Assembly (NCBI GenBank): GCA_903957365.1 | Contig: CAJBPB010000214.1 | Coordinates: 1 to 64,000, forward strand | Direction: 5' to 3' | DNA: 64,000 nucleotides | Origin: an uncultured Bacteroidota bacterium | GTDB taxonomy: Bacteria > Bacteroidota > Bacteroidia > Bacteroidales > F082 | Shown: positions 1 through 45,478 of the stretch, in pieces | Position numbering within the stretch: position 1 is the stretch's first letter | How the letters are laid out: each line of letters opens with the position of its first letter | Notes under the pieces: model-generated | What the model saw: only the letters and a program-made list of their open reading frames with translations | The model's database searches: none | Told to the model about the DNA's origin: nothing | Made by a program: the position numbers and the translations under genes

Positions 1-248
1 CCCATAATCACGAAAACGAATGCAAGTAACATCAGACCCTCCTGAATATCTCCAAGGACCAGATAAAGTGTTCCGCAGGCCACAAGCAACAAAAACATCG
101 GCTCCTGAATAACCCCAAGTGTCAGATTGAAGAAATTTTTAGGTTTTGAAGAGGGCAATTCGTTAAAACCATCACTTCCTCTTTTTAGTTTTACCTCCTC
201 TTCGGTTAATCCCTGAATCTTCTCTTTTCTGAAACTATTGTCTGTCAT
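1..248 (-). CDS. P-type cation-transporting ATPase, N-terminal part (cut by window edge)
   Basis: Reading leftward from an ATG at 246-248, the frame stays open to the window edge and gives about 82 residues. The start (MTDNSFRKEKIQGLTEEEV) followed by a short Gly/Asn-containing linker (SDGFNELP) and a hydrophobic stretch after a QEP motif matches the cation-ATPase N-terminal domain and first membrane helix of P2-type (calcium or other cation) ATPases. The phosphorylation (DKTGT) and ion-binding segments lie outside the window, so the transported ion cannot be told. It should be an inner-membrane ATP-driven cation pump. The gene runs in the same direction as the mevalonate operon, but about 240 bp separate it from the nearest ORF. 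Confidence 0.8.
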   Translation of the reverse strand, partial: MTDNSFRKEKIQGLTEEEVKLKRGSDGFNELPSSKPKNFFNLTLGVIQEPMFLLLVACGTLYLVLGDIQEGLMLLAFVFVIM

Positions 249-484
249 AGCTACCGGATATTTTAGTCAGTCAGCCAAATAAATATTGTGGAATCCTACA
301 AATTGAGGTATAAAAATAAGAAAGATTCAATCAATAAAAAGTGAAACAGACGATAAAATGATAGAATAGAATAGTTCTAAGGGGCGGGCGGGAGTTATAA
401 AATGAGCGGAGTAATGCCATCGGATTCTGGCCACATATCGATTGAGCCAGAAGATGGTTTAACATAGTTTTCCGCAGGAACTGG

Positions 485-775
485 TTAGGCCCAACGGCTG
501 AATTGCCTCAAATTGTTGCGAAAACGGCGCAGTCGTTGTATTGCCGGAGAGTAAAAGAGACGACGGACTTTCGGGAATTCGATCTTCCGGAATTCGTAAC
601 CCTCTTCTTTTAATGCTTTTATGACACGTGGAAGCACCCAATAGAGGTGATTGGCAGCTTTTTTTGTTAAGATAATTGCATTTGATGTGTTTGAGTCAGG
701 ATTAACTTCTTTGCATAATGAATATTTCTTTAATATTTCCTGCAACTTCCAATCCGGCATTTCTTCCGGTATCAT
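485..775 (-). pseudogene. Small overlapping ORF, possible degenerate deacetylase C-terminus
   Basis: A 96-residue frame whose first 74 bp overlap the end of the tocopherol-cyclase-like gene in another frame. I do not recognise it as a known small protein. Residues about 33-62 (an AIIL strand, then VLPRVIKALKEEGYEF) resemble the last strand and helix of NodB-type polysaccharide deacetylases, where a hydrophobic strand, a His-Asp and a helix ending in GYxF are usual. The His-Asp is missing. The rest is basic (RRLRRFRNN). It may be a remnant, a real small basic protein, or a chance frame. The similarity is from memory of the family, not from a search. Confidence 0.3.
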
Positions 776-1682
776 TTAGAAGTATTGTTTTGTTGATTTT
801 GTCATACAGCTGAACCTCAATTCTGTCGTTCATACTTTCTTCTATACGGCCATCCATAAAACCTGAGATCGGAGAAGCAAGACTGGTGGCAGCCTCGCGA
901 AGTGCAAGTATTTCAAGCCTGAAATTCTTGTTTTCCATGACAAGCTCAACTTTTTTCTGATCGGCAAATGATGTGATAAGTTTAGTTGAATTGTAGGTTG
1001 TGAACCTGATGATCCTGTCATGAATCCATATTCCGGCAATGAAACCCACAAAAGAACTACCCAGCCAGGGAATTTTTGCTACAGATGCTTTTAACGAGAT
1101 TCCGTCCTGACTGAAATGATTGGTCTGCATCCAAAAATAAGCATCAGGAAATGAATGTCCCCAGTCTTTTTCGATATACCCACGACCGTTTGTAAAATCA
1201 ATTGTTTCACCATGGATTGTCAGTTTTCCATGGATTGTATGGTTCATACTTAGTATTCCATGATAACATTCCATAAACGGAACAAATGAATAGGGTCCCA
1301 TGATACCGGGCGAATACCAGGGACAGGGCCATGGCACAAGATTTTCAAAATTTAACTCACCTGTAACATCTGGTAAATCAAGTTTAATTGTATTGATTGC
1401 GAAAAAGCTGGATGATATTCTGACCTCAAATTTGTGTTTTTCGAAAAAAAAATCACTCATTTCAAATTTGTGGTATTCAGCTGTCAGTTTCTTTCCGTCA
1501 AGTATCTGAATAAATGATTGCTGCAAACCATTTTCATCCATTGCGATGCCCGGAATAAAAGCAAAAGCCCTTGATTCATCAGCATTTACAACTTTGTAAT
1601 ACCAGCCTTCAAAAAACCGTTTTGTTTTTCCTTGACCATGGTATTGTGCAGGATGAAAAAGCGTGTGGAGTTGGTTTAGCAT
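702..1682 (-). CDS. Tocopherol-cyclase-like family protein
   Basis: This 326-residue protein carries the hallmarks of the tocopherol cyclase family (Pfam Tocopherol_cycl): FFEGWYYK at residues 23-30, GYIEKDWG at 168-175 followed by an aromatic FWMQTNHF segment, and a C-terminal AGLEVAG. Plant members close the chromanol ring of tocopherols. Most bacterial members have no known substrate. No signal peptide is visible, so it is probably cytosolic or peripheral. It is the last clear gene of the leftward mevalonate operon, 87 bp after mevalonate kinase, which suggests an isoprenoid or prenyl-lipid substrate. That link is inference. The family call is firm and the activity is unknown. Confidence 0.8.
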   Translation of the reverse strand: MLNQLHTLFHPAQYHGQGKTKRFFEGWYYKVVNADESRAFAFIPGIAMDENGLQQSFIQILDGKKLTAEYHKFEMSDFFFEKHKFEVRISSSFFAINTIKLDLPDVTGELNFENLVPWPCPWYSPGIMGPYSFVPFMECYHGILSMNHTIHGKLTIHGETIDFTNGRGYIEKDWGHSFPDAYFWMQTNHFSQDGISLKASVAKIPWLGSSFVGFIAGIWIHDRIIRFTTYNSTKLITSFADQKKVELVMENKNFRLEILALREAATSLASPISGFMDGRIEESMNDRIEVQLYDKINKTILLNDTGRNAGLEVAGNIKEIFIMQRS

Positions 1683-1769
1683 TATCTTGAAATTGTCAGA
1701 TGTAGTTAAATAGTAAAGAGCAAATATTTACAAATCATTCCGGTCAGAATCATGATCGAAAGTGATAGC

Positions 1770-2681
1770 TTATTGCAAAGGTATTAATTCAAAAAATTCA
1801 GTTATAGGGTGTAATAATTTTTCATTAGTCGCAAAAACCAACAAGTAACCACCACCGCCTGAGCCACAAAGTTTCATGATATAATCGCCGTTTTGCAAAC
1901 CCTTTTGCCAGAAATTGCGCATCTCCGCAGGTACCATCGGCTCAAAAAAGGTATATTCAAAAGCTGAAATTGTATGTGCTGATTGAAAAAAGGGGACTGA
2001 ATCTCCCTTTCTGAAATGCTGAATAGCCTTATTGACAGATGGTATAAGTTGATCACGTAATTTCTTAAAGAAACTGTACTGATGAAGTTGTGCATCAAAA
2101 TGCTGCATCAGTATGGTTGTTTCACGTGGTAGTTTTGTGTCAACCAAAAAGACTTTCATTGATTGGTTTGCCAGATTCAACGGATTTTCTACGCAACTGA
2201 TGTTACTGTTTTCATCAATCAGCACTGTTTCGCCCAGATAACAACTTATTGGATCGATCCCCGAACTGTTGCCGTGAAAATAAGCCTCCATTCCTGCCAT
2301 GATGGAACGTAGCGTGGTGATATCCTCATGCGACGGGTTTGTTACATAACGCTCATAAACGCCGGCTACCAAAGCTCCAGAGCTTCCGACACCATAGCCC
2401 TGAGGTATAGTCGAGCTAAAAAACAATCCGTCTTCCAGGTCTTTTTTCAATTGTGACAAGTCAAGTATTTCATAATATTCCTGCTTGTTAGCAAGAAAAT
2501 TATGAAAACCCTTTAAATGACTGTTTGATTTTATACTGAAAAGATCCTCCGATTGTTTAATCCAATCCCATCTGGCTGAAACGCTGCGGAAAGGCACAAC
2601 CAATCCCATCGAATTGCAGATCAGACTGTATTCGCCAAAGAGCATGATTTTGCCATGGTATATGTCGCGTGGCTTATTCAA
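1770..2681 (-). CDS. mvaK1: Mevalonate kinase (GHMP family)
   Basis: ATP-dependent phosphorylation of mevalonate to 5-phosphomevalonate in the cytosol. The 303 residues show the GHMP kinase signatures: GKIMLFGEYSL at residues 10-20, the phosphate-binding loop GYGVGSSGAL at 95-104, the mevalonate-kinase motif EAYFHGNSSGID at 132-143 (catalytic Asp at the end) and the C-terminal CGSGGGG at 272-278. The start codon overlaps the stop of the decarboxylase gene by 4 bp (ATGA), so translation is probably coupled. Length is close to bacterial mevalonate kinases. Members of the GHMP superfamily can be hard to tell apart, but the HG-x-SSGID motif and the operon make this assignment strong. Confidence 0.88.
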   Translation of the reverse strand: MNKPRDIYHGKIMLFGEYSLICNSMGLVVPFRSVSARWDWIKQSEDLFSIKSNSHLKGFHNFLANKQEYYEILDLSQLKKDLEDGLFFSSTIPQGYGVGSSGALVAGVYERYVTNPSHEDITTLRSIMAGMEAYFHGNSSGIDPISCYLGETVLIDENSNISCVENPLNLANQSMKVFLVDTKLPRETTILMQHFDAQLHQYSFFKKLRDQLIPSVNKAIQHFRKGDSVPFFQSAHTISAFEYTFFEPMVPAEMRNFWQKGLQNGDYIMKLCGSGGGGYLLVFATNEKLLHPITEFFELIPLQ

Positions 2682-3784
2682 AAACTTGAAATTGTTGAGG
2701 TTCCCAGACCAACTTTATCATCAATCCATTGTTGCTGGTAACACAAGGGTAGTAATTCTTCATGCAGAAATTCAATTACCTGTGTCCGGTATTCCTCAGG
2801 ATATAACAAATGTAAATTTGGACCTGCGTCAAGCGTAAAACAAAGTGGAACTGCGGTGCGCTGTCTGTAATTCCTTATTGCTGTGATGGCTGCAAGGGAA
2901 TTGGGCTGCAATAAAATGAAGGATGGTTCCGACACCATCATAAGTGCATGAAGCTGCATGGCTTCAGTTTCAGTTATTTGAATAAAAGCATCCAGATCTC
3001 CTGTCTGCAATATTTTAATTAAACTGATTGTTTGTTTATTGGCTTCCTGATATCGTTGTGAAGCAAAAGGATTGGTCTCCATCAAAGCATGGCCTGCGCG
3101 ACTTGATACAGATTTAACACCTCCATGAATAATCAGAATGCTGTCTTGAAATGTTTTATATACGGGATGAAGTATTTGCTCCAGTGGGATTGCAATTTCG
3201 TCACTGCTGTTTGGTAATGCTTCTGTAACTCCCCATTCAGCAGCCAAAGAAAACACCGAACGTGCAGCGCTTCCTGAACCTAATCGCGCCATAAAAGATG
3301 CTTTGGTCATATCAATCTTTCCTGATACATCACCTTTTAATTGAAGTTCAATATCAGTTAGGCAGGCTGCGAGGGCACTCATCGAGGAGGCTGAGGAGGC
3401 AATGCCTGAAGAATGCGGGAAGGTGTTACGACTTTCGATTTCGAAGTCAAGATGTTGAATAAAAGGGAAGTAGGGGAGAAGTGAAAGTAAATAATCCTGA
3501 ACTTTTCTGCCAAACTGTGGCGTTTCACTGCCTTCGAAGAGGAAACGAAAAGCTGCCTTCTGTTGTTTTTTATAATTAACCTTCACTTTGGTTTCAGTGC
3601 GCGATTGGCTTAACGTGAAACTAATCGAAGGATTGTTTGGCAGCTGGTTGCCGTGTTTTCCCCAGTATTTCACCAAAGCGATATTTGACGGGCTCTGCCA
3701 GATGATCGTCGTCTGAAAAGCTGAATAATTCGAAGGGGAAAATGCTTCCCGGATATATCGTTCATGAAGGTTTTTGTTCAGCAT
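2678..3784 (-). CDS. mvaD: Diphosphomevalonate decarboxylase
   Basis: Converts mevalonate 5-diphosphate to isopentenyl diphosphate with ATP. The 368-residue protein has the family motif NIALVKYWGK at residues 34-43 followed by NNPSIS, the phosphate loop PHSSGIASSASS at 123-134 and the GSGSAARS segment at 169-176, which contributes to substrate binding. The N-terminal extension of roughly 25 residues before the first strand is slightly long. No alternative start is favoured. It sits 3 bp after the GYDIA kinase gene and overlaps the mevalonate kinase gene by 4 bp, so all four pathway genes appear to be on one transcript. Confidence 0.93.
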   Translation of the reverse strand: MLNKNLHERYIREAFSPSNYSAFQTTIIWQSPSNIALVKYWGKHGNQLPNNPSISFTLSQSRTETKVKVNYKKQQKAAFRFLFEGSETPQFGRKVQDYLLSLLPYFPFIQHLDFEIESRNTFPHSSGIASSASSMSALAACLTDIELQLKGDVSGKIDMTKASFMARLGSGSAARSVFSLAAEWGVTEALPNSSDEIAIPLEQILHPVYKTFQDSILIIHGGVKSVSSRAGHALMETNPFASQRYQEANKQTISLIKILQTGDLDAFIQITETEAMQLHALMMVSEPSFILLQPNSLAAITAIRNYRQRTAVPLCFTLDAGPNLHLLYPEEYRTQVIEFLHEELLPLCYQQQWIDDKVGLGTSTISSF

Positions 3785-3787
3785 ATC

Positions 3788-4720
3788 TCAGAATATCAGT
3801 TCTTTGTATTTGAATAATGTCTGTAAACCTTTGCTTGCAAAATAGTCTGCAACCTCAGGATGAGATAGATTTGACATGGCCAGAAAGAAATCACCACCCC
3901 ATGCGCCAAGTGATTTGATGTGCCCCTGAAAATCGGGAAAGTTCGTTTTTAATGGCGGATGCTGTAACAAATCTGCTACCAGAGATTCATGCGTATCCAT
4001 CAGATCACAGAAACCCGAAAAAGTGTGTGTCAGGGCGATCTGGTCAGTAATCTCACTTACTTTCTGAACGGCCGTTTCCATATCAATGTCTTTGGACAGT
4101 TGATTGAAACGTAGTATTTCATTGCCTGAATCCTGTTTATTACCCCGATATACCAGAAACAGTTTTTCATGAAATGATGGCATAAATTCAACAGACTGAA
4201 CATTAGGTCGCATCGATTTCAACTGGTAAAATAAAGGCTTGTCTGACAATGCACAGGCAATATCATAACCAGATCCGCCAATAGACAAGTTAAGCAAGGT
4301 GTAGGGATCAACCCTTGCCCAGCGGGAAAGATTGGCGATAAGTGTGGAACTGCTTCCAAATCCCCATTCAGGCTTAAAATCGAGACGGGTTTTTATGTTG
4401 TATGAATACTTTCCGTCAAAAATGGATGGATTCAACTGTTTAAGCGTGAGAAGGATAAGTTGTAGTTTTGCTGATCGTTTCCGGTCGTCGGTACCGATGA
4501 TATCCAAAGAAGGCAGCTCGAAAGAGGTTTTAAACCAGAGTTTCTCAGGACCAAATGCAAACCATAACAAATGAGGATGTCCATCATTATCTGACTCAGC
4601 AATTTCGATGGATTGACCTTTGTTTAATGGAACAGCCAAAGCTTTCGCACCTCTTAGCACAAGGTATTCCCCTGTAAGCAATAGTTTTCCGTTTGATCTG
4701 AATTGTAATGGGTGGTTCAC
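3788..4720 (-). CDS. GYDIA-type GHMP kinase, probable phosphomevalonate kinase
   Basis: A 310-residue GHMP-superfamily kinase with the N-terminal GKLLLTGEYLVLRGAKALA at residues 11-29, a phosphate loop GFGSSSTL at 120-127 and the diagnostic GGSGYDIA ending at 155, which gives the Bacteroidota GYDIA subfamily its name. The operon encodes HMG-CoA reductase, mevalonate kinase and the decarboxylase but no canonical phosphomevalonate kinase. This protein is therefore the natural candidate for phosphorylating 5-phosphomevalonate. The start follows the HMG-CoA reductase stop by a single base. The subfamily assignment is secure. The exact substrate is inferred from pathway completeness. Confidence 0.85.
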   Translation of the reverse strand: MNHPLQFRSNGKLLLTGEYLVLRGAKALAVPLNKGQSIEIAESDNDGHPHLLWFAFGPEKLWFKTSFELPSLDIIGTDDRKRSAKLQLILLTLKQLNPSIFDGKYSYNIKTRLDFKPEWGFGSSSTLIANLSRWARVDPYTLLNLSIGGSGYDIACALSDKPLFYQLKSMRPNVQSVEFMPSFHEKLFLVYRGNKQDSGNEILRFNQLSKDIDMETAVQKVSEITDQIALTHTFSGFCDLMDTHESLVADLLQHPPLKTNFPDFQGHIKSLGAWGGDFFLAMSNLSHPEVADYFASKGLQTLFKYKELIF

Positions 4721-4721
4721 T

Positions 4722-6050
4722 TTATTTTCGGATGGATGCGATATAATGACCCACGCTTGAAAATGAAACCTTCTGATCTTTGAAATGTTCCACTGCGGCT
4801 GATTTTTCTTTGTCGCTGGCTTTGAAGTGGTTGAGGATGTTGAACAGGTGCATTTTCATGTGTCCGGCCTGAATCCCTTTGGTGGTCAGCGATTTCACAG
4901 CTGAAAAGTTATTGGCCATTCCCATCACAGATGCGATCATCATCAATTCGGGAGCGGATGGATTACCAAGCAGTTCGAGTGATTGTTTAGCCAGTGGATG
5001 CAGCGCGGTAAGTCCGCCAACTGTACCAAGTGCCAACGGCACTTCAAGTATAAATCGGAAAGTATCGTTATCTATTTCAACCCGTGACAGGCTTTCGTAT
5101 TGTCCGTTTCTTGAAGCATAAGTATGACCGGCAGCTTCGATAGCTCTGAAATCGTTCCCTGTTGCAATGGCTACTGCATCAATACCATTGTAAATTCCTT
5201 TGTTGTGTGTGGTTGCCCTGTACATATCCACCTGAGCTATCTTCACTGCTTTCTCAAATTTGCGCGCAAAAGCTTCGCCGGTGAGTCTTTCGTCCACGTT
5301 ATCAAGATCACTGAGTTTACACTCGACCCATGTTTTTACAATACATTCGGGTGTGTAATTAGATAAAATAGCCATGATGATTTCACATTGTCTCTCATCA
5401 TCCGACAGCTGGTATTGCTCGGCAAGGAATATTTTTAATGATTGACCAAATTCTTCAAGCACCGAGTTGATGAAATTGGCGCCCATGGAGTCTTTGGTTT
5501 CGAAATGCGCCCGCAACTGGTAATAATCCGCAATTTTGTCGGTCATGTCGATGAGTTCAATGCCAACGATACCACCACCACGTTTTTCCATATTGGCGGT
5601 AATGGGTTTTGCGTCTTCAATCAGCCGGTTTTTAATGGCGGGTAACAAAGTAAAAAGGGTATGTGGCTCTCCGGTCCAGCTAAAATGTACCTGTCCGACT
5701 TTAGTTGTGTTTAGTACCTCTGAATGAAAACCACCTCTCTCGCTCCAGAATTTTGCTGCGGAGGAGGCGGCAGCGACTACTGAACTTTCTTCAATCACCA
5801 TCGGAACGAGGTAGTTTCGTCCGTTAATCAGAACATTGGGAGAGATTCCATAAGGGATGTAAAAGTTGGTGATGGTGTTTTCACTGAATTCATCAAAAAG
5901 TTTCTGCTGACTTTCATCGCTATGCCAGAAACTCTTCAAAAGTGTAATCACTTCACCTGGATTTTCGAAATACTCAGCCACAAGCTTGAGTTTTTCTTCT
6001 TTGAGGAGTTTTGAAAACCCTTTGATGATAATATCTCTTTTCCTTCGCAT
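4722..6050 (-). CDS. mvaA: Hydroxymethylglutaryl-CoA reductase, class II type
   Basis: Reduces HMG-CoA to mevalonate, the committed step of the mevalonate pathway. The 442 residues include the catalytic-glutamate motif EESSVVAAASSAAK at 87-100, the nucleotide-binding DSMGANFIN at 187-195, the catalytic-lysine motif THNKG at 281-285 and the catalytic-histidine motif GHMKMH at 396-401. These are class II features (as in Pseudomonas mevalonii), a group often labelled 'degradative'. Here it leads an operon of biosynthetic genes, so a biosynthetic role is far more likely. It is the promoter-proximal gene. A TACTTTG resembling a -7 element, one base short of consensus, lies about 45 bp upstream. 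Confidence 0.93.
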   Translation of the reverse strand: MRRKRDIIIKGFSKLLKEEKLKLVAEYFENPGEVITLLKSFWHSDESQQKLFDEFSENTITNFYIPYGISPNVLINGRNYLVPMVIEESSVVAAASSAAKFWSERGGFHSEVLNTTKVGQVHFSWTGEPHTLFTLLPAIKNRLIEDAKPITANMEKRGGGIVGIELIDMTDKIADYYQLRAHFETKDSMGANFINSVLEEFGQSLKIFLAEQYQLSDDERQCEIIMAILSNYTPECIVKTWVECKLSDLDNVDERLTGEAFARKFEKAVKIAQVDMYRATTHNKGIYNGIDAVAIATGNDFRAIEAAGHTYASRNGQYESLSRVEIDNDTFRFILEVPLALGTVGGLTALHPLAKQSLELLGNPSAPELMMIASVMGMANNFSAVKSLTTKGIQAGHMKMHLFNILNHFKASDKEKSAAVEHFKDQKVSFSSVGHYIASIRK

Positions 6051-17774: not shown

Positions 17775-18623
17775 TCAATATTCCCAAAGATCGTGTTCGA
17801 AATTAAAGATATCCATTTTGATTCGTTCAGCTTCCAGAAGAGCATCAACACCGGTTGAGTATTGGTTAATCTTGCGGTCGTAAACATTTTCTTCCTTGAT
17901 GATATAACTATCAAACATACGTTTCCAGAAAATTTCGTCGTATGTGCGTTTCTCTGCAGAATTCTGACGGTTGAATACTTCGGCTTTGGCTAAAACCTTA
18001 CGCGCCTGTGCATAAGAAATCCAGAACAATGGTTGTGGGATTTCCTTCCCATCTTTCTCAACCATCAACACCGGACAGAGTGCGATAATGCGAACCATCA
18101 TCTGTGAGCGTTGTTTATCGAAATACCAGTCTTCTTTAATACGTAAACGCATTACCTGACTTGGATCAAAATCACGAATAATTACTGTATCATATTCATC
18201 ATAAGGAGGATATGATCTTCTTTGGGTGATATAAGAAGTATCAGATTGCTTCGAAATGATATCCTTGTAGGATGTTGGTACGAGAAGTTCATCGGTATTG
18301 GATATCTCGTATGCAACGAATTGGTTCTCTTTTAATCCGTCAAGCACAACATTGATAAAACTACGCCAATTGTTATGTGATTCAGTTGGATAGTAGAATG
18401 GCTGATTGATTTTCTGACGAAAATCAATTTCGCGCCAGATTCTTTTCGACCACATCACGTCAGCCTGACGAATGTAAGGAAAAGGAATCGGGTCTTTTTC
18501 AATAGTGCCATCGCTTGCGAATAAACCATCCACAGGCCTTTCGTCAAGAATTTGTGCCGAAAGATTTTGTGATGAACTTACTGCAAAGCCCAAAACAAAC
18601 AGCGCGATGATGAATTTTTTCAT
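17775..18623 (-). CDS. gldN: Type IX secretion periplasmic ring protein GldN/PorN
   Basis: 282 residues with a signal peptide (MKKFIIALFVLGFAVSSSQ, cleavage near LSAQ). The mature region begins with a flexible linker and an ADVMWSKRIWREIDFRQK motif typical of GldN/PorN. PorN binds the lipoprotein PorK to form the large periplasmic ring of the type IX secretion machine. It is the last gene of the porP-gldKLMN set, 21 bp after gldM, and a terminator follows. Confidence 0.95.
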   Translation of the reverse strand: MKKFIIALFVLGFAVSSSQNLSAQILDERPVDGLFASDGTIEKDPIPFPYIRQADVMWSKRIWREIDFRQKINQPFYYPTESHNNWRSFINVVLDGLKENQFVAYEISNTDELLVPTSYKDIISKQSDTSYITQRRSYPPYDEYDTVIIRDFDPSQVMRLRIKEDWYFDKQRSQMMVRIIALCPVLMVEKDGKEIPQPLFWISYAQARKVLAKAEVFNRQNSAEKRTYDEIFWKRMFDSYIIKEENVYDRKINQYSTGVDALLEAERIKMDIFNFEHDLWEY

Positions 18624-18644
18624 GGGTTCCTCCTGAATTTTATT

Positions 18645-20306
18645 CTAATTAATCTCTAAGTTGATAGGGTTCAAGGTACGCATTGTGCCGTCCGGACCTT
18701 TTGCCTGAATACGCTCAAAATAGAGTTTTTGTCCTTTTGATGCGTTTTTAATGAAGTTCATGGCCGTTTCATTAAAGATATTTCCTTTAATTGTACCAGT
18801 CGTTTGTAAGTCACCACCTCTGTAGGTTGACATCTGATAGGATACGATTTCATAATTAAAATCGGCAAAATCAAAGTCGACCAGCTCAGGGATAATGGCA
18901 CGTGCGCCAATTAGCCTGTTTTTCTCAATCTGACCATCGGTCATATTTGCAATTTTTGCAACTGGATCAGGTACACGTTTAATTCTGAAAAGGAAACTAC
19001 CCAGTTCCATGGTGTTATCACCGATTTTAGCTGAGGCAGTAATCGTTACAGTTTTTTCGCCTGTTGGTACTTCAACGTCATAGGTGCCATCCTCTTTTCT
19101 TGTCATTTTACCTTTCGAAATGGATGGAGTTATCAATTCTGACGGAACACCTGGTGCATTAATAGAAACCGGATTTTTTAATCCGCTGTACAAGATATTC
19201 ATTTTCAGCGGAGCAACGGTAAGTGTGCGGGGTACAACAATGTAATCAGCGGCAAAACTGTGGCGTGCCAACTCATTGGTAGATGGGTCAAATATCTCAA
19301 TAATACCTGCGTAGCGCTGTGGACCTGGATTTGTTGCTGCAAATTCAAGTTTCGCAGTTCCATTTTCTGTTTTCAATATCTGTGCACCGCCAAGGCTACC
19401 TTCAGAGACTTTGTCAGCACCACGAACAATTTTCACTGTAGAAGGGCTTTTAGAATCGTAAGCTGCAACCATGATTTCCGCCTCATACTTTGATCCCATC
19501 AAAACGTATTGCGATTTTGGAATAACTTTGGCTTCAACTTTATCAAACTTGAAATCTTTCTCTGAAATATTACCATAAAGATTACTAATAGCATCGAATT
19601 CAGCTGTTTGAATCTCTGCAATAATCTTGTTGAGAATGGTTACGTTTGCAGCAAGAATGGTGTTGTAGAAGTTATAGACTTCCCAATTCTGAGGAGCACC
19701 TGATGCATCGTAATATTTGCCATCAGTAACCATACCTAGTTTATCAGAATATTGATCACCAATTACACTAAGAATGAATTTACGGTATTCCTGCAACTTT
19801 GCTGAGAGTTCATAAGCTTTTCCTTTTTTATTCTGTCCAATCATATAATTGGTTGGCTCATCAAACTTATCCTTGGTAGGAATAATTGCAAGATTGATAA
19901 CGTATTTATCATACATAGTACCCGGATTCAGAGGATTTGGGTCTTGTTTTACAGTAAAAAACTGTTTACGTGCTTCATCAATAGATATTTTCTCAGAGCG
20001 TGCAACCACTTCCTGTTTGATATCTTCGATATATTTCATCAACTCGAAAGATTTGATACGCACTTCTTTTGCTTTGTCCCAATATTCCTGTGTCTTACCA
20101 GGGTTTAACCGGTATTGACTTTCGAATTTGGCATATTCGCTGTTAATTTTTGTATAGAAACTTTCATTCGAGTTTTCCATACTGTCATTCACAACGAGGA
20201 AGGCGTTCAGAATATCCTTGGAGACGTTGAGGGCCAACAAGGCAGTAAGCACCAAATAGAGCATACCAATCATCTTCTGCCTTGGGGTTTCTTTGTATCC
20301 GGCCAT
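18645..20306 (-). CDS. gldM: Type IX secretion motor/shaft protein GldM/PorM
   Basis: 553 residues. One N-terminal membrane helix (about 10-30, QKMIGMLYLVLTALLALNVS) carries the conserved glutamate-facing surface used with GldL. The periplasmic part has a helical bundle followed by several Ig-like beta domains. GldL and GldM form the proton-driven rotary motor of type IX secretion, and the GldM shaft reaches the PorK/N ring. The N-terminal MAGYKETPRQKMIGMMYL-type start is a strong family signature. Confidence 0.96.
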   Translation of the reverse strand: MAGYKETPRQKMIGMLYLVLTALLALNVSKDILNAFLVVNDSMENSNESFYTKINSEYAKFESQYRLNPGKTQEYWDKAKEVRIKSFELMKYIEDIKQEVVARSEKISIDEARKQFFTVKQDPNPLNPGTMYDKYVINLAIIPTKDKFDEPTNYMIGQNKKGKAYELSAKLQEYRKFILSVIGDQYSDKLGMVTDGKYYDASGAPQNWEVYNFYNTILAANVTILNKIIAEIQTAEFDAISNLYGNISEKDFKFDKVEAKVIPKSQYVLMGSKYEAEIMVAAYDSKSPSTVKIVRGADKVSEGSLGGAQILKTENGTAKLEFAATNPGPQRYAGIIEIFDPSTNELARHSFAADYIVVPRTLTVAPLKMNILYSGLKNPVSINAPGVPSELITPSISKGKMTRKEDGTYDVEVPTGEKTVTITASAKIGDNTMELGSFLFRIKRVPDPVAKIANMTDGQIEKNRLIGARAIIPELVDFDFADFNYEIVSYQMSTYRGGDLQTTGTIKGNIFNETAMNFIKNASKGQKLYFERIQAKGPDGTMRTLNPINLEIN

Positions 20307-20353
20307 TTTATAATTTCTTTAATTTCGTCATTAATAATTTTACAGTAGCGTGA

Positions 20354-21379
20354 TTATGCTTTGCCGGTCATAGCCGATAACATATTGCCATATACCTTGT
20401 TCAACGAAGTCATACGGGCCGAAAGTTCGGTAAGTTGTTCGTTAAAATGTGCAGCATTTACAGCGGTCTGGTTCATCTTGTCGAGATATTCATTCATCGA
20501 TTTCTGAAGTTTTTCGCTGGTATCGCTATTTTTTGTGGTGCCTTGTAACTGTAATTCGTAAACTGCGTTTAGTTTGGCCAGATTTTGTGCGATCTTCTGA
20601 AGTTGTTCATTGTAAGCAACGCCGTCAATTGTACCGAAATCGAGTGCCTCAACTGATTTATTAATCAAAGCTGATGATTTGGCATAAGTTTCTGCTAGTT
20701 GTCTGGCTGACTGTGAGGCAGCCTTAACAGTACCGGCAAACTCTTCAGTTGAATTCATGTCTGATTTGATGATATCAGCTGCCTGAACGTATGCGTGGCT
20801 TAGTTTGTTTGCACTTGCTGAAGCTGACTTCATATTCTCAATATATTCGATAGAGGCAGTTGCGTCTTTACCTAATACTTCAGATGCTTTTTTGTAATTG
20901 CCAGCCAATTCTGATGCTGATTTCGAAGCACCTTTGATGGTATCAACATATTCGTTGGTTGCAACGGCTGCATTTGAAATGTCGCCCATCTGGGAAGCAT
21001 TTTCACTCAATTTCTGCAATCCCTTACTGAGTCTGTCCAGCGTACTCGATTCAATATTGGCCTCCTTGAACATCTGATCCAGTTTTTGCGTTGCAGTCTT
21101 CTTTCCTTCCAATTCTTTCTCAACCGGAGATTCATGATACATGCCGCCCAATTGTGGATAAACAAGACTCCAGTCTGGTTCCACGTGCGGAGGCTCGAAA
21201 GCTGAGAAGAAAAATATGATAGCCTCTGTTCCAAGACCTATAATTAGCATTTCATTTGCATAGTTATAGTGGTTGATTTTGAATAATGCACCAACGATAA
21301 CAACTGCTGCTCCAATACCATAGAGCTTCGACATGAAGTTTTTGTATCCTTTGCTTCTTACTAGCTTGCTAAATTCCAT
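20354..21379 (-). CDS. gldL: Type IX secretion motor protein GldL/PorL with long coiled-coil tail
   Basis: 341 residues, longer than the roughly 215 of Flavobacterium GldL. Two membrane helices (about 20-37 and 44-61) bracket a KINHYNYANEMLIIG segment typical of the proton-conducting motor subunit. After the FEPPHVEPDWSLVYP linker comes a cytoplasmic coiled coil. Residues 141-243 hold three imperfect 35-residue repeats, each starting near an E-Y/F pair (143, 178, 213) and rich in Ala and Ser. The long tail resembles PorL of Bacteroidia and could dock cytoplasmic partners. Confidence 0.94.
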   Translation of the reverse strand: MEFSKLVRSKGYKNFMSKLYGIGAAVVIVGALFKINHYNYANEMLIIGLGTEAIIFFFSAFEPPHVEPDWSLVYPQLGGMYHESPVEKELEGKKTATQKLDQMFKEANIESSTLDRLSKGLQKLSENASQMGDISNAAVATNEYVDTIKGASKSASELAGNYKKASEVLGKDATASIEYIENMKSASASANKLSHAYVQAADIIKSDMNSTEEFAGTVKAASQSARQLAETYAKSSALINKSVEALDFGTIDGVAYNEQLQKIAQNLAKLNAVYELQLQGTTKNSDTSEKLQKSMNEYLDKMNQTAVNAAHFNEQLTELSARMTSLNKVYGNMLSAMTGKA

Positions 21380-21415
21380 TGTTTGAAAAAAATTGAGGTT
21401 AATGTAAATTATTTA

Positions 21416-22789
21416 TTATCTGTAAACTCTTGATGCTTTTGATGGATTATCTCCTTTATTACGACCTAAGAATGGCTGAATTGTACGGAAACCGATATAA
21501 CATTTTGCAGTATCCTGGAATTCATAGGCACGTGAGGTAACCTGTAAGTAATATTCAATGTCTTTCCATGATCCGCCGCGGATAACTTTACGTTTCATGG
21601 CCGGGGCATCGCTTTCTTTTGCTGTATAGGTATAATTTGGATTCATGTCCCAGGTGAAATTATAGGAGGCCGGGTCGAATGCACTGTTTGTCCATTCTGA
21701 AACATTACCTGACATATCGTATAATCCCCAGTCATTTGGAGGGTAATGTCCTACGATTACTGTACGCAATCCACCATCAACGATGTAATTGCCACGTAAA
21801 GGTTTAAAGTTTGCCAGGAAACATCCTTGCTCATTGCGGGTATAAGGACCACCCCATGGATAAGGATTCAGGTGGTTTCCACCACGTGCTGCCCATTCCC
21901 ACTCTGCTTCGGTTGGCAATCTGAATTCAGCAAGCGCAACTTCGCCTTTTTGGGCGCGCAGATAAGAATTAAGTTTTTCGGTTCTCCAGACACAGAAAGC
22001 ACGCGCCTGACTCCAGTTCACACCAACGACAGGATAATGGTCATACGCAGGATGCCAGAAATATTTTTCGGTGAGAGGATCATTGAATGAATAGGTATAA
22101 TCATGAATCCATGAAAGTGTATCAGGATAAACATTGATCATTTCTTTACGAACATAAACCGATCTGTTGGCGAGTCCTTGGGGACGGTTAGCCAAACCAG
22201 CATTACGGAAGTCAGCCCCTTCTTTAAATTCTTTTTTTGCCGCCGCCTGAAGGTCAACCCAGTAGTATTCGTAGTTTAGTTTTCTTGTGTCGATTTCCTT
22301 GCGACGGAAATAGCGCTCAAAATCAGGGAGGTACATGCCTGTTTCGAGGGCATCACGTACATCCTGGTTTTCGCTGTTCCATTCGATTTTTGTTTTCCAG
22401 TTCAGATAAGGTGGATCATATACTTCACCTGTTTTTTCGTTTTCACTGATCAGGTACTCGTCAGGCAAAACATCGCCCAGAATTGTACGGGCAATCGAAT
22501 CGCGGACCCAGTAAACAAATTCCCTGTATTCATTATTGGTAATCTCTGTTTCATCCATAAAAAAGGCTGAAACTGAAATTGTTTTTGCCTCATTTAACTG
22601 ACCATCGGTGATGTCTTCACCGCCAATTCCCATGGTGTAGCTTCCTTGCGGGATAAAAGCCATACCGTATGGATCAGGCTGATAAAAAGGTTTTGACTTT
22701 TTTCTCACACCAACCAGTTCACCTTGATTTGTGTTGCTGCAACTCGCAAGAATCATTAACGCCATCGCGTAATAAAGTAGGTTCTTCAT
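21416..22789 (-). CDS. gldK: Type IX secretion lipoprotein GldK/PorK
   Basis: 457 residues with a lipoprotein signal (lipidated Cys at 17) and a formylglycine-generating-enzyme-like fold: GSYTMG, DETEITNNEYREF, RLPTEAEWEWAARGG, YDMSGNVSEW and a C-terminal RGGSWKD/GFR pair. The sulfatase-modifying active-site cysteines are not expected in GldK. The protein forms the outer-membrane-anchored ring with PorN. It follows porP in the P-K-L-M-N order. Confidence 0.95.
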   Translation of the reverse strand: MKNLLYYAMALMILASCSNTNQGELVGVRKKSKPFYQPDPYGMAFIPQGSYTMGIGGEDITDGQLNEAKTISVSAFFMDETEITNNEYREFVYWVRDSIARTILGDVLPDEYLISENEKTGEVYDPPYLNWKTKIEWNSENQDVRDALETGMYLPDFERYFRRKEIDTRKLNYEYYWVDLQAAAKKEFKEGADFRNAGLANRPQGLANRSVYVRKEMINVYPDTLSWIHDYTYSFNDPLTEKYFWHPAYDHYPVVGVNWSQARAFCVWRTEKLNSYLRAQKGEVALAEFRLPTEAEWEWAARGGNHLNPYPWGGPYTRNEQGCFLANFKPLRGNYIVDGGLRTVIVGHYPPNDWGLYDMSGNVSEWTNSAFDPASYNFTWDMNPNYTYTAKESDAPAMKRKVIRGGSWKDIEYYLQVTSRAYEFQDTAKCYIGFRTIQPFLGRNKGDNPSKASRVYR

Positions 22790-42065: not shown

Positions 42066-42734
42066 ATGGGCAAATCTTTGACTTATTCATCCATCACCAA
42101 AAAGATCATCATGTCGCTGGCTGGTTTGTTTTTAATCAGTTTTCTGTTGGTGCATCTTGGAATTAATCTACTGATCCTTTTCGATAACACCTACGAAAGT
42201 TTTAATACTGCGGCGCATTTTATGGCGACAAATCCGCTGATTCAGACTTTTCAATGGGTATTGTTCATCGGGTTTATCATTCACATCATTTATGGGATTA
42301 TTGTTCAGCTTCAAAACTGGTCAGCCCGTCCGGTCAGGTATATGAAAAAAGGCTATTCAGAACTTTCTTTTTTCTCGAAGTTTATGATTCATACCGGAGT
42401 AGTGGTGTTCATTTTTCTGATCATTCACTTTGCAAACTTTTTCATCGTGGCAAAATTCGGTCATGTTGATGAAGTAACTTACAAATCAGGCACCTATGAA
42501 AATTTGGGAGCTGTTGTCGTTGAAACCTTTAAAATCGGGTGGTATGTTGCCTTTTATGTTGTAGCGCTATTATTACTTGGTTTTCATCTCGAACATGGCA
42601 TTCAATCTGCTTTTCAATCGCTGGGGATCAATCATTGGCGGTACACTCCTGTTATCAAACGTATCGGAACACTGCTTTCGATTTTGATTACGCTTGGTTT
42701 TATTGCAATCCCACTGGTTATTTATTTTTCCTAA
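42066..42734 (+). CDS. sdhC: Succinate dehydrogenase/fumarate reductase cytochrome b subunit
   Basis: 222 residues, five membrane helices (about 10-34, 55-80, 103-126, 155-178, 195-218) with His in HLGINLL, HIIYGII, HTGVVVF/LIIHFAN and HLEHGIQSAF that can bind two haems, as in the diheme b-type subunit of Wolinella and Bacteroides. It anchors the SdhA/SdhB enzyme and exchanges electrons with menaquinone. Gap to sdhA is 12 bp. Confidence 0.95.
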   Translation: MGKSLTYSSITKKIIMSLAGLFLISFLLVHLGINLLILFDNTYESFNTAAHFMATNPLIQTFQWVLFIGFIIHIIYGIIVQLQNWSARPVRYMKKGYSELSFFSKFMIHTGVVVFIFLIIHFANFFIVAKFGHVDEVTYKSGTYENLGAVVVETFKIGWYVAFYVVALLLLGFHLEHGIQSAFQSLGINHWRYTPVIKRIGTLLSILITLGFIAIPLVIYFS

Positions 42735-42746
42735 GACATTACAGCT

Positions 42747-44687
42747 ATGACAAAGTTAAATCCAAAAATACCAAATGGCCAGCTTGATCAAAAATGGACG
42801 AATTACAAAGCCCATCAGAATTTAGTAAATCCATCCAACAAGCGTCGTCTTGATATCATTGTTGTCGGAACCGGTTTGGCCGGTGCTGCCGCTGCTGCAA
42901 GTTTTGGTGAATTAGGTTTCAATGTAAAAGTATTTGGCATTCATGATAGCCCTCGCCGTGCGCATAGTATTGCGGCACAAGGTGGTATCAATGCTGCAAA
43001 AAATTATCCAAACGATGGCGACAGTGTTTTTCGTTTGTTTTATGATACAATCAAAGGTGGCGACTACCGTGCCCGTGAAGCCAATGTATTCCGGTTGGCT
43101 GAGGTAAGTAACAGCATCATTGACCAATGTGTGGCACAAGGTGTTCCTTTTGCACGGGATTATGGCGGATTGCTTGACAACCGTTCTTTTGGTGGCGCTC
43201 AGGTTTCACGTACATTTTATGCCCGTGGTCAGACAGGTCAGCAATTGTTATTAGGTGCATATAGTGCGCTGAGCAAAGAAATCGGAAAGAAAACAGTAAA
43301 AATGTATACCCGTCGTGACCTGATGGATGTTGTGATCGTGGACGGTCTGGCACGTGGTATCATCGTAAGAAACCTGATTACCGGTGAAATTGAACGCCAT
43401 TCAGCCCATGCGGTTGTTTTGGCAACCGGCGGATACGGAAATGTATTTTTCCTCTCTACAAACGCCATGTCGTCTAATGGAAGCGCCATCTGGAAAGCTT
43501 ATAAAAAAGGAGCATTCTTTGGTAATCCTTGTTTCACACAGATTCATCCAACCTGTATTCCAGTTCACGGTGAATACCAGTCGAAACTTACGCTGATGAG
43601 TGAAAGTTTGCGCAATGACGGACGTATCTGGGTTCCAAAGAAACTGGAAGATGCTGAAAAAATACGCAAAGGCACACTTAAAGCAGGAAATTTAAAAGAG
43701 GAAGACCGCGATTATTACCTTGAACGCAGGTATCCCGCGTTTGGAAATCTTGTACCACGCGACGTAGCCTCCCGTGCTGCCAAAGAACGTTGTGATGCTG
43801 GTTTTGGTGTCGGAACAACTGGTTTGGCTGTATATCTTGATTTCGCTGATTCCATTAAACGATTGGGTAAAAACGTAATTGAGTCACGTTACGGTAATCT
43901 TTTCCAGATGTATGAAAAGATTGTGGATGAAAATCCATACGAAAACCCAATGATGATTTATCCTGCAGTGCATTATACGATGGGTGGAATCTGGGTTGAT
44001 TATGAATTACAGACAACTATTCCGGGTTTGTTTGCTGCCGGTGAGGCTAATTTTTCTGATCATGGTGCCAACCGTTTGGGTGCTTCTGCCCTGATGCAGG
44101 GATTGTCAGATGGTTATTTCGTGCTTCCATATACCATTCAGAATTATCTGGCAAATCAGATTCAGATTCCAACAATTAAAACCGATCTTCCCGAATTTGT
44201 GCAGGCCGAAAAGGAAACCAAAGACCTAATTCAGAAGTTGCTAACGATCAATGGTAAAAATACGGTTGATTCGTATCACCGTAAATTGGGCTTGATTATG
44301 TGGGACAATGTTGGGATGGGACGAAATAAAGAAGGTTTGACCAATGCGATAAAGTTGATTCAGGAATTAAAAGTTGATTTCTGGAAAAATGTAAAAGTTA
44401 CCGGAACCAACGATCAGGTGAATCCTGAGCTTGAGAAAGCGCTGCGTGTTGCCGACTTTATTGAGTTGGGCGAATTGATGGCCAGAGATGCTCTGTCACG
44501 TCAGGAATCTTGTGGCGGACATTTCCGTGAAGAATACCAGACACCGGAAGGTGAGGCATTACGTGATGACAAAGATTTTACATTCGTTTCGGCCTGGGAA
44601 TATAAAGGCGACAATGTGGAACCTGAAATGCACAAAGAACCACTTGTATTTGAGTTTATCGAAGTGAAACAACGCAATTACAAATAA
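42747..44687 (+). CDS. sdhA: Succinate dehydrogenase/fumarate reductase flavoprotein subunit
   Basis: 646 residues with FAD motif [12 protein letters not shown], covalent-FAD histidine region [12 protein letters not shown], active-site [28 protein letters not shown] and a C-terminal [11 protein letters not shown] with catalytic Arg. It interconverts succinate and fumarate. With the diheme SdhC it is of the type that can run as fumarate reductase in anaerobes, so direction cannot be told from sequence. Confidence 0.97.
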
Positions 44688-44722
44688 GCACAGAACCGTA
44701 AACGACATAAAATCAGAAGAAA

Positions 44723-45478
44723 ATGGATCTTACATTGAAAATATGGCGACAAGCCTCATCAAAAGTGAAGGGGCAATTTGTCAATTATCAGGTTCAAAAT
44801 ATTTCCGCAGAAGCCTCATTCCTCGAAATGCTCGATATTCTTAACGAAAGTCTGGTTGCAAAAGGTGAAGAACCTGTTGCATTTGACCATGATTGCCGTG
44901 AAGGTATTTGCGGAGCCTGCAGCTTGTACATCAACGGTCGTCCTCATGGACCAGACCGCGGTATCACAACCTGCCAGATGCATATGCGTAATTTCAAACA
45001 TGGTGAAACCATCATTATTGAGCCATGGCGTGCAAAACCATTTCCGGTGATCAAAGACCTGATGGTTGACCGTTCTTCCTTCGATGAAATTATACAGGCC
45101 GGAGGATTTGTTTCGGTGCGTACTGGTGGCATCCCTGACGCTAATTCGATACCAATTCCACGTAGAAATGCAGAACTGGCAATGGATGCAGCAGCCTGTA
45201 TTGGTTGTGGAGCCTGCGTTGCCGCATGCAAAAACGCGAGTGCGATGTTGTTTGTTTCTGCCAAAGTTTCACAGTTTGCCTTGTTGCCACAAGGTCGGAT
45301 CGAAGCACAGGAAAGGGTACAGCGGATGGTTGCAAAAATGGATGAACTTGGTTTTGGTAATTGCACCAATACTTATGCCTGTGAGGCTGAATGTCCGAAA
45401 GAGATATCAGTTTCGAATATCGCCCGGATGAACAGGGAGTTTTTGAGTGCCAAACTCATCTCTCACAAAGAGTTTTAA
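44723..45478 (+). CDS. sdhB: Succinate dehydrogenase/fumarate reductase iron-sulfur subunit
   Basis: 251 residues with [2Fe-2S] ligands in [20 protein letters not shown], then C-terminal clusters in [15 protein letters not shown] and [16 protein letters not shown]. It carries electrons between SdhA and the haems of SdhC. The last gene of the sdhCAB unit. A terminator and then a palindrome follow. Confidence 0.97.

What the first reader, a model, noticed from the sequence alone, without database searches (positions are those of the whole stretch)
702..1682. Tocopherol-cyclase-like gene at the end of the mevalonate operon
Plant members close the chromanol ring of prenylated quinols. Bacterial members have no known role. 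Placement directly after mevalonate kinase suggests a prenyl-lipid or prenyl-quinol substrate, a link between isoprenoid supply and an undescribed cyclised lipid.
Basis: partly seen in the sequence, partly recalled or inferred. Interest (0 to 1): 0.55.

Follow-up and report, generated by a model that had tools for sequence, protein, structure and literature searches.

The report
Tocopherol-cyclase-like gene beside mevalonate operon
A non-photosynthetic bacterium carries a relative of the plant enzyme that makes vitamin E; its place beside the isoprenoid genes looks like a local accident of one small lineage, but relatives elsewhere are paired with a rare quinone-prenylating enzyme, so a vitamin-E-like lipid in such bacteria can now be tested for.

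Summary
In detail: window 702-1682 (minus strand) encodes a 326-aa PF14249 (tocopherol cyclase) protein, 87 bp behind mevalonate kinase in an HMGR-GHMP-MDD-MVK operon. The argument drawn from that position is not. The operon is conserved in relatives, the cyclase is not: it is in 2 of 4 genomes of the genus and 3 of 61 genomes searched, against 38 of 61 for the kinase. None of 80 close homologues elsewhere has a mevalonate gene in the flank held, and across 395 genomes of the phylum cyclase and mevalonate marker do not co-occur. It is a sporadic, probably horizontally moved gene. A better clue came from elsewhere: in two Bacteroidota and one Spirochaetota genome the homologue adjoins a rare MenA-like UbiA prenyltransferase, found only beside it (3 of 515 genomes). 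The predicted fold (pLDDT 91) is the double beta-barrel of prenyl-alkene hydratases and pericyclases, with the plant motif nearly intact. Most likely it cyclises a prenylated quinol, menaquinol or a relative, to a chromanol. Not shown biochemically; plant VTE1 does not accept menaquinol-4 (PMC4963081).

The parts
702..1682 (-). tocopherol-cyclase-like gene (PF14249), 326 aa
   Evidence: model pLDDT 91.3, pTM 0.90
1158..1178 (-). codons of motif YIEKDWG (residues 169-175), the counterpart of the plant/cyanobacterial YxEKNWG motif; E171, K172, W174, G175 invariant
   Evidence: motif named in PMC4963081
1119..1151 (-). codons of FPDAYFWMQTN (residues 178-188), counterpart of FP+xWxW+QxN; W184, Q186, N188 invariant in 64 rows; first W of the plant motif is Y182 here
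1683..1769 (-). 87-bp gap between mevalonate kinase and the cyclase-like gene, with a 15-bp block identical in the sister genome; a promoter of its own is possible
1770..2681 (-). mevalonate-kinase-like GHMP kinase (operon context, not part of the cyclase function)
   Evidence: TIGR00549, 67.5 bits, under its cut-off of 163
2678..3784 (-). diphosphomevalonate decarboxylase
3788..4720 (-). GYDIA-family GHMP kinase (NF040656), presumed phosphomevalonate kinase
   Evidence: 331.6 bits, cut-off 225; the step is inference
4722..6050 (-). hydroxymethylglutaryl-CoA reductase
485..775 (-). not a gene of the operon: an open frame made of the cyclase gene's tail out of frame plus a stretch weakly resembling a polysaccharide deacetylase C-terminus, across a contig junction near 658/659

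Best explanation
The gene encodes a soluble, cofactor-free double-beta-barrel enzyme of the tocopherol cyclase family that protonates a prenyl double bond of a membrane prenyl-quinol and lets the phenol oxygen close on the tertiary cation, giving a chromanol. In this host the substrate is probably menaquinol or demethylmenaquinol made by its single MenA; the product would be a non-respiring, antioxidant quinol isomer (a menachromanol). E171 of the YIEKDWG motif is the most likely proton donor, with W27, W174 and W184 near the cation. The gene was acquired horizontally and settled behind the mevalonate operon in one sublineage; that place is not part of its function, though it may give expression together with isoprenoid supply. 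Shown here: family, predicted fold, motif, distribution, absence of conserved mevalonate linkage, pairing of homologues with a rare MenA-like prenyltransferase. Inferred: reaction, substrate, catalytic residue, product role, direction of transfer.
For: PF14249 match far above cut-off. YxEKxWG and FPxxYxWxQxN motifs kept, invariant at E171, W174, W184, Q186 and N188 in 64 aligned rows; the 2016 paper proposes this motif as catalytic (PMC4963081). AlphaFold2 model at pLDDT 91.3 matches, over 259-287 residues at Z 17-24, pericyclases CghA/Fsa2/Phm7, AttH-like NE1406, kievitone hydratase and 25-phosphosteroid lyase, next unrelated row Z 7; kievitone hydratase adds water to a prenyl double bond (PMC5805349) and carotenoid 1,2-hydratase does so by acid catalysis (PMC12402844). 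CrtC-family proteins from the same phylum carry WMDHEW...GWDW with the D/W spacing (+15, +17) of the catalytic D268/W283/W285 of RgCrtC, and hhalign lays YIEKDWG on WMDHEW. A MenA-like UbiA prenyltransferase lies next to the homologue in G244 and G147 (54 and 57 bp, divergent) and in L104 (same strand, some 30 bp upstream), and strong matches to it occur in no genome without the cyclase: 2 of 395 Bacteroidota (chance that both are among the 11 cyclase-bearing ones 7e-4) and 1 of 120 in the sample around L104's genome. The host has a MenA well over its cut-off.
Against: Recombinant Arabidopsis cyclase was inactive on menaquinol-4, naphthoquinol-4 and ubiquinol-4 (PMC4963081). The MenA-like partner is absent from the window's genome, so the clue is carried over from homologues 38-58% identical. 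Only 3 of 93 loci looked at show the pairing. The motif has D instead of N at 173 and Y instead of W at 182. The superfamily also holds hydratases, lyases and pericyclases, so the fold does not fix the reaction. The sequence link to CrtC alone is weak (hhalign probability 10%, score 30.9 against a best of 29.4 in 40 shuffles).
Confidence: 0.5

Rival explanations
1. It is a prenyl-alkene hydratase or isomerase rather than a cyclase: same acid chemistry, but the tertiary cation is trapped by water, on a prenyl-quinol, carotenoid or polyprenyl lipid.
For: Fold shared with kievitone hydratase (Z 19.5) and 25-phosphosteroid lyase (Z 17.7); motif register matches CrtC.
Against: Sequence family is that of tocopherol cyclase, not CrtC: the window protein has no CrtC Pfam match.
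Confidence: 0.25
2. It acts in the mevalonate/isoprenoid pathway itself or on an isoprenoid whose supply is tied to that operon.
For: Position behind mevalonate kinase in two sister genomes, conserved 87-bp spacing.
Against: Operon intact without the gene in G001, G002, G015, G018, G014; none of 80 homologues near mevalonate genes; no co-occurrence in 395 genomes; G050 has both genes but on different contigs, its kinase followed by a UbiA gene.
Confidence: 0.07
3. It processes a scavenged environmental compound, such as plant or algal phytol, a tocopherol precursor or plastoquinol, rather than an endogenous quinone.
For: Sporadic distribution; in L104 the UbiA-cyclase pair sits beside a DUF92 protein, the family of plant phytyl-phosphate kinase VTE6 (that VTE6 belongs to DUF92 is recalled, not from a call).
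Against: DUF92 is as common in cyclase-free genomes (7 of 11 against 225 of 395, Fisher p 0.76) and absent from the window's genome.
Confidence: 0.12

Closest known systems
Tocopherol cyclase VTE1/SXD1 of plants and its cyanobacterial counterparts (PF14249, EC 5.5.1.24)
   Same: Pfam family over cut-off, YxEKxWG motif, FPxxxxWxQxN motif, single copy per genome
   Different: Shorter (326 against 488 aa in Arabidopsis), D for N and Y for W in the motifs, no photosynthetic context; no sequence of VTE1 itself was compared here
Tocopherol-cyclase-like proteins of heterotrophic bacteria reported in PMC4963081
   Same: Same family in non-photosynthetic bacteria, role unknown
   Different: The passages I read name other bacteria and no Bacteroidota ('bacteroid' 0 occurrences in the main text); no gene neighbourhoods in what I read
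Carotenoid 1,2-hydratase CrtC / kievitone hydratase / AttH superfamily
   Same: Double beta-barrel fold, acid residue plus tryptophans in matching register
   Different: Sequence identity 10-13% in the structure alignments; the reaction traps water, not an internal phenol
Fungal pericyclases CghA, Fsa2, Phm7
   Same: Highest structural matches, Z 22-24
   Different: Their [4+2] cycloadditions are a different reaction; no kinship in reaction implied

Membership tests
PF14249 tocopherol cyclase family | Profile match over the curated cut-off | tested here: met
   94.5 bits against 26.6
PF14249 tocopherol cyclase family | Motif YxEKNWG of the photosynthetic members | tested here: inconclusive
   YIEKDWG: one change, N to D, shared by nearly all bacterial rows here
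PF14249 tocopherol cyclase family | Neighbouring motif FP+xWxW+QxNxF | tested here: inconclusive
   FPDAYFWMQTNHF: first W is Y, rest kept
Tocopherol cyclase (enzyme, EC 5.5.1.24) | Cyclises methyl- or dimethyl-phytylbenzoquinol to a tocopherol | not testable with these tools
   needs an enzyme assay
Tocopherol cyclase (enzyme, EC 5.5.1.24) | Genome encodes an aromatic prenyltransferase for the substrate | tested here: inconclusive
   Window genome: MenA, a heme O synthase-type and one more UbiA only; dedicated MenA-like partner in G244, G147, L104
CrtC / AttH / kievitone hydratase superfamily (fold) | Double beta-barrel fold over the whole chain | tested here: met
   Predicted model: Z 17-24, 259-287 residues aligned, rmsd 3.3-4.4
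CrtC family PF07143 | Profile match | tested here: not met
   No PF07143 match for the window protein at E <= 0.1; hhalign against ten CrtC-family rows probability 10%
Mevalonate pathway operon member | Conserved in the operon across relatives | tested here: not met
   2 of 37 genomes of the family carry it, 34 of 37 carry the kinase; 0 of 80 homologues linked

The most novel reading that the evidence does not exclude
Many heterotrophic bacteria make vitamin-E-like chromanol lipids from prenylated naphthoquinols, through a two-gene module of a MenA-like prenyltransferase and a tocopherol cyclase homologue, or through the cyclase alone working on the cell's own menaquinone pool; chromanol synthesis would then not be a privilege of photosynthetic organisms.
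Probability: 0.35. Interest if true: 0.78.

Novelty: new member of a known kind. Interest (0 to 1): 0.47.

Why it matters
Tocochromanols are described as made solely by photosynthetic organisms (start of the abstract of PMC5745509, search listing). Cyclase homologues in heterotrophs were noted in 2016 with the remark that their function deserves further study (PMC4963081), and my searches for follow-up (listings only) showed none that assigns one. The rare MenA-like partner and the fold-based guess at the catalytic residue give concrete, cheap tests: two genes in laboratory E. coli, one lipid extraction, one point mutant.

Tried and rejected
Operon-based function: rejected. Recurrent neighbours of the homologues: the clusters found are local synteny of close relatives, or broad families such as response regulators and sulfatases; two neighbours that look like P450s (L076, L105) were seen by eye only. 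DUF92 (VTE6 family) as a co-occurring partner: rejected, 7 of 11 against 225 of 395. Solved relatives by sequence: none for the protein, only chance alpha-crystallin rows for the profile. Plasmid relatives: three clostridial plasmids at 30-32% identity; the two regions opened were uninformative. Papers holding 'menachromanol': none in the library. A paper on engineered tocotrienol gave nothing on the cyclase active site in the passages shown. No VTE1 sequence was at hand, so no direct comparison with the plant enzyme was made beyond the Pfam profile. Residue-level superposition on CrtC was not possible: no coordinates were given and RgCrtC itself is not in hand; the register rests on motif spacing.

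Full report
What is there. Window 702-1682 on the minus strand is an ORF of 326 codons with a strong match to PF14249, tocopherol cyclase: E 9.1e-27, 94.5 bits against a cut-off of 26.6; NCBIfam gave no match. It follows a four-gene mevalonate operon: HMG-CoA reductase, GYDIA-family GHMP kinase, diphosphomevalonate decarboxylase and a mevalonate-kinase-like gene. The four genes lie 1-3 bp apart or overlap by 4 bp; the cyclase-like gene starts 87 bp after the kinase stop. In the sister genome G003 the order and the 87-bp spacing are the same, and the cyclase protein is 88% identical.

Is the mevalonate link general? No. In 61 genomes (own plus 60 relatives) the kinase was found in 38 and the cyclase-like protein in 3. 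Inside the family (37 genomes) the figures are 34 and 2; inside the genus (4 genomes) 4 and 2. In the five operons I opened, G001, G002, G015, G018 and G014, the four genes are intact and something else follows the kinase (G014 and G018 share one such gene). G050 has both, but its kinase is on contig C86 and is followed by a UbiA-family gene, whereas its cyclase fragment runs off the end of a 5.4-kb contig. In a sample of 395 genomes of the phylum, PF14249 is in 11, the GYDIA kinase over its cut-off in 54, both in 2 (G000, G238), Fisher p 0.65. The GYDIA marker covers only this lineage's type of mevalonate pathway, so this test is not exhaustive.

A mobile gene. Presence in 11 of 395 genomes in eight genera, in Cloacimonadota, Spirochaetota and Gammaproteobacteria MAGs whose sequences nest among those of Bacteroidota, and nearest kin to the window in Paludibacter and Saprospiraceae while 35 of 37 genomes of its own family lack it point to horizontal spread; repeated loss is the alternative and was not modelled. 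Some foreign placements could be MAG binning errors: L124 (Gammaproteobacteria) lies on a 3-kb contig and is very close to a Bacteroidota sequence (end branches 0.05 and 0.04), and I do not lean on it. The tree has many weakly supported forks and long branches; of the window's own placement only the pairing with G003 (100/100) is firm.

A better clue: the prenyltransferase partner. In G244 (L046, L183) and G147 (L051, L184) the homologue is divergently transcribed, 54 and 57 bp apart, from a UbiA-family prenyltransferase; in the Spirochaetota MAG L104 the same kind of gene lies directly upstream on the same strand. The three prenyltransferases are 56-60% identical to one another and score best against MenA models, all under the cut-offs, so they look like a separate MenA-like subfamily. 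In the 395-genome sample, strong matches occur only in G147 and G244; six further matches are 33-36% identical and 75-86 bits, which I take as more distant MenA-like proteins. In 120 genomes of the phylum of L104's genome it is found only there. So 3 of 515 genomes have it, and all three have the cyclase next door. All three were first met through the cyclase, so the adjacency is not independent of how they were found; what is independent is that no searched genome has the partner without the cyclase. The chance that both strong Bacteroidota hits fall among the 11 cyclase-bearing genomes is 7e-4. The window's own genome lacks this partner, and so do most homologues: 3 of 93 loci looked at (80, 11, plus G003 and G050) have it adjacent.

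What the host offers as substrate. G000 has three UbiA-family proteins: one at the border of the heme O synthase model (210.1 bits, cut-off 210.3), one MenA (TIGR00751, 248 bits, cut-off 102) and one nearest to geranylgeranylglycerol-phosphate transferase models, under cut-off. MenA implies menaquinone, the obvious prenyl-quinol. That is inference; menaquinone genes other than menA were not searched.

Fold and chemistry. The AlphaFold2 model from 64 sequences has mean pLDDT 91.3 and pTM 0.90. Foldseek and VIA-align place it with the AttH/CrtC-type double beta-barrels (that these form one superfamily with CrtC is recalled): CghA Z 23.6, Phm7 and Fsa2 22.4, NE1406 20.1, kievitone hydratase 19.5, 25-phosphosteroid lyase 17.7, then a drop to 7.0. 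Kievitone hydratase adds water to a prenyl double bond (PMC5805349, abstract and passages). Carotenoid 1,2-hydratase protonates a terminal prenyl double bond with D268 in a cavity between two barrels, with W110, W283 and W285 stabilising the cation (PMC12402844, passages). CrtC-family proteins of this phylum read WMDHEW followed by GWDW, with the tryptophans 15 and 17 residues after the aspartate, as in D268/W283/W285 (counted by eye). hhalign lays YIEKDWG on WMDHEW, which puts E171 at the acid and Y182 and W184 at the two tryptophans. The score, 30.9, beats all 40 column shuffles but the best of them reached 29.4, so sequence alone is weak support; the fold carries the claim of common ancestry. 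W27, E171, W174, W184, Q186 and N188 are invariant in the 64 rows. A tocopherol cyclase would use the same proton transfer and let the quinol oxygen take the place of water.

What is known. PMC4963081 (abstract, passages and one section read) reported tocopherol-cyclase-like proteins in heterotrophic bacteria with the conserved motif and left their role open; it also found the Arabidopsis enzyme inactive on menaquinol-4, naphthoquinol-4 and ubiquinol-4. That is the strongest result against menaquinol as substrate, though it concerns a distant enzyme.

Side result on the assembly. Contig C214 (the window) and contig C109 of the same genome share 168 bp covering the end of the cyclase gene with one mismatch, then part at a run of A. 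C109 continues with genes also found downstream in the sister genome G003; the window continues into a fragment weakly like a deacetylase and the start of an ORF that looks by eye like a P-type ATPase, not found elsewhere in G000 nor in G001-G003. Either strains differ or the contig end is misjoined. The cyclase gene itself is complete in the window and in G003.

Verdict. A real member of a known family with an over-read address. The operon argument fails; the prenyl-quinol argument survives on other evidence. Confidence that it cyclises a prenyl-quinol: about one half.

Noticed in passing
window 1-658 and 485-775: Left end of the window is the end of a contig; its sequence after a run of A differs from contig C109, which shares 168 bp and then follows the sister genome's genes. 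Strain variation or misjoin; the ORF 485-775 is a chimera.
   Followed up: partly
L104:1-3475 (Spirochaetota MAG): Divergent from the MenA-like UbiA and cyclase pair lies a 448-aa protein whose C-terminal half is DUF92 (family recalled as that of plant phytyl-phosphate kinase VTE6) and whose N-terminal half looks by eye like a dolichol/phytol kinase; together a set resembling plant VTE5/6-VTE2-VTE1.
   Followed up: partly
L046:2509-3465, L051:2521-3453, L104:1545-2471: A rare MenA-like prenyltransferase subfamily, seen only beside tocopherol-cyclase-like genes in 515 genomes.
   Followed up: yes
L185 (Monoglobus plasmid), 2695-4783: The clostridial plasmid homologue overlaps a gene annotated FAD-dependent oxidoreductase by 8 bp, a possible different partner in that branch.
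   Followed up: no
G050:C86:8738-10591: In G050 the mevalonate kinase is followed on the same strand by a UbiA-family prenyltransferase.
   Followed up: no
window 17775-22789 and 42066-45478: Genes that look by eye like the gliding/type IX secretion set gldN-gldK and a succinate dehydrogenase operon; not searched against a library.
   Followed up: no
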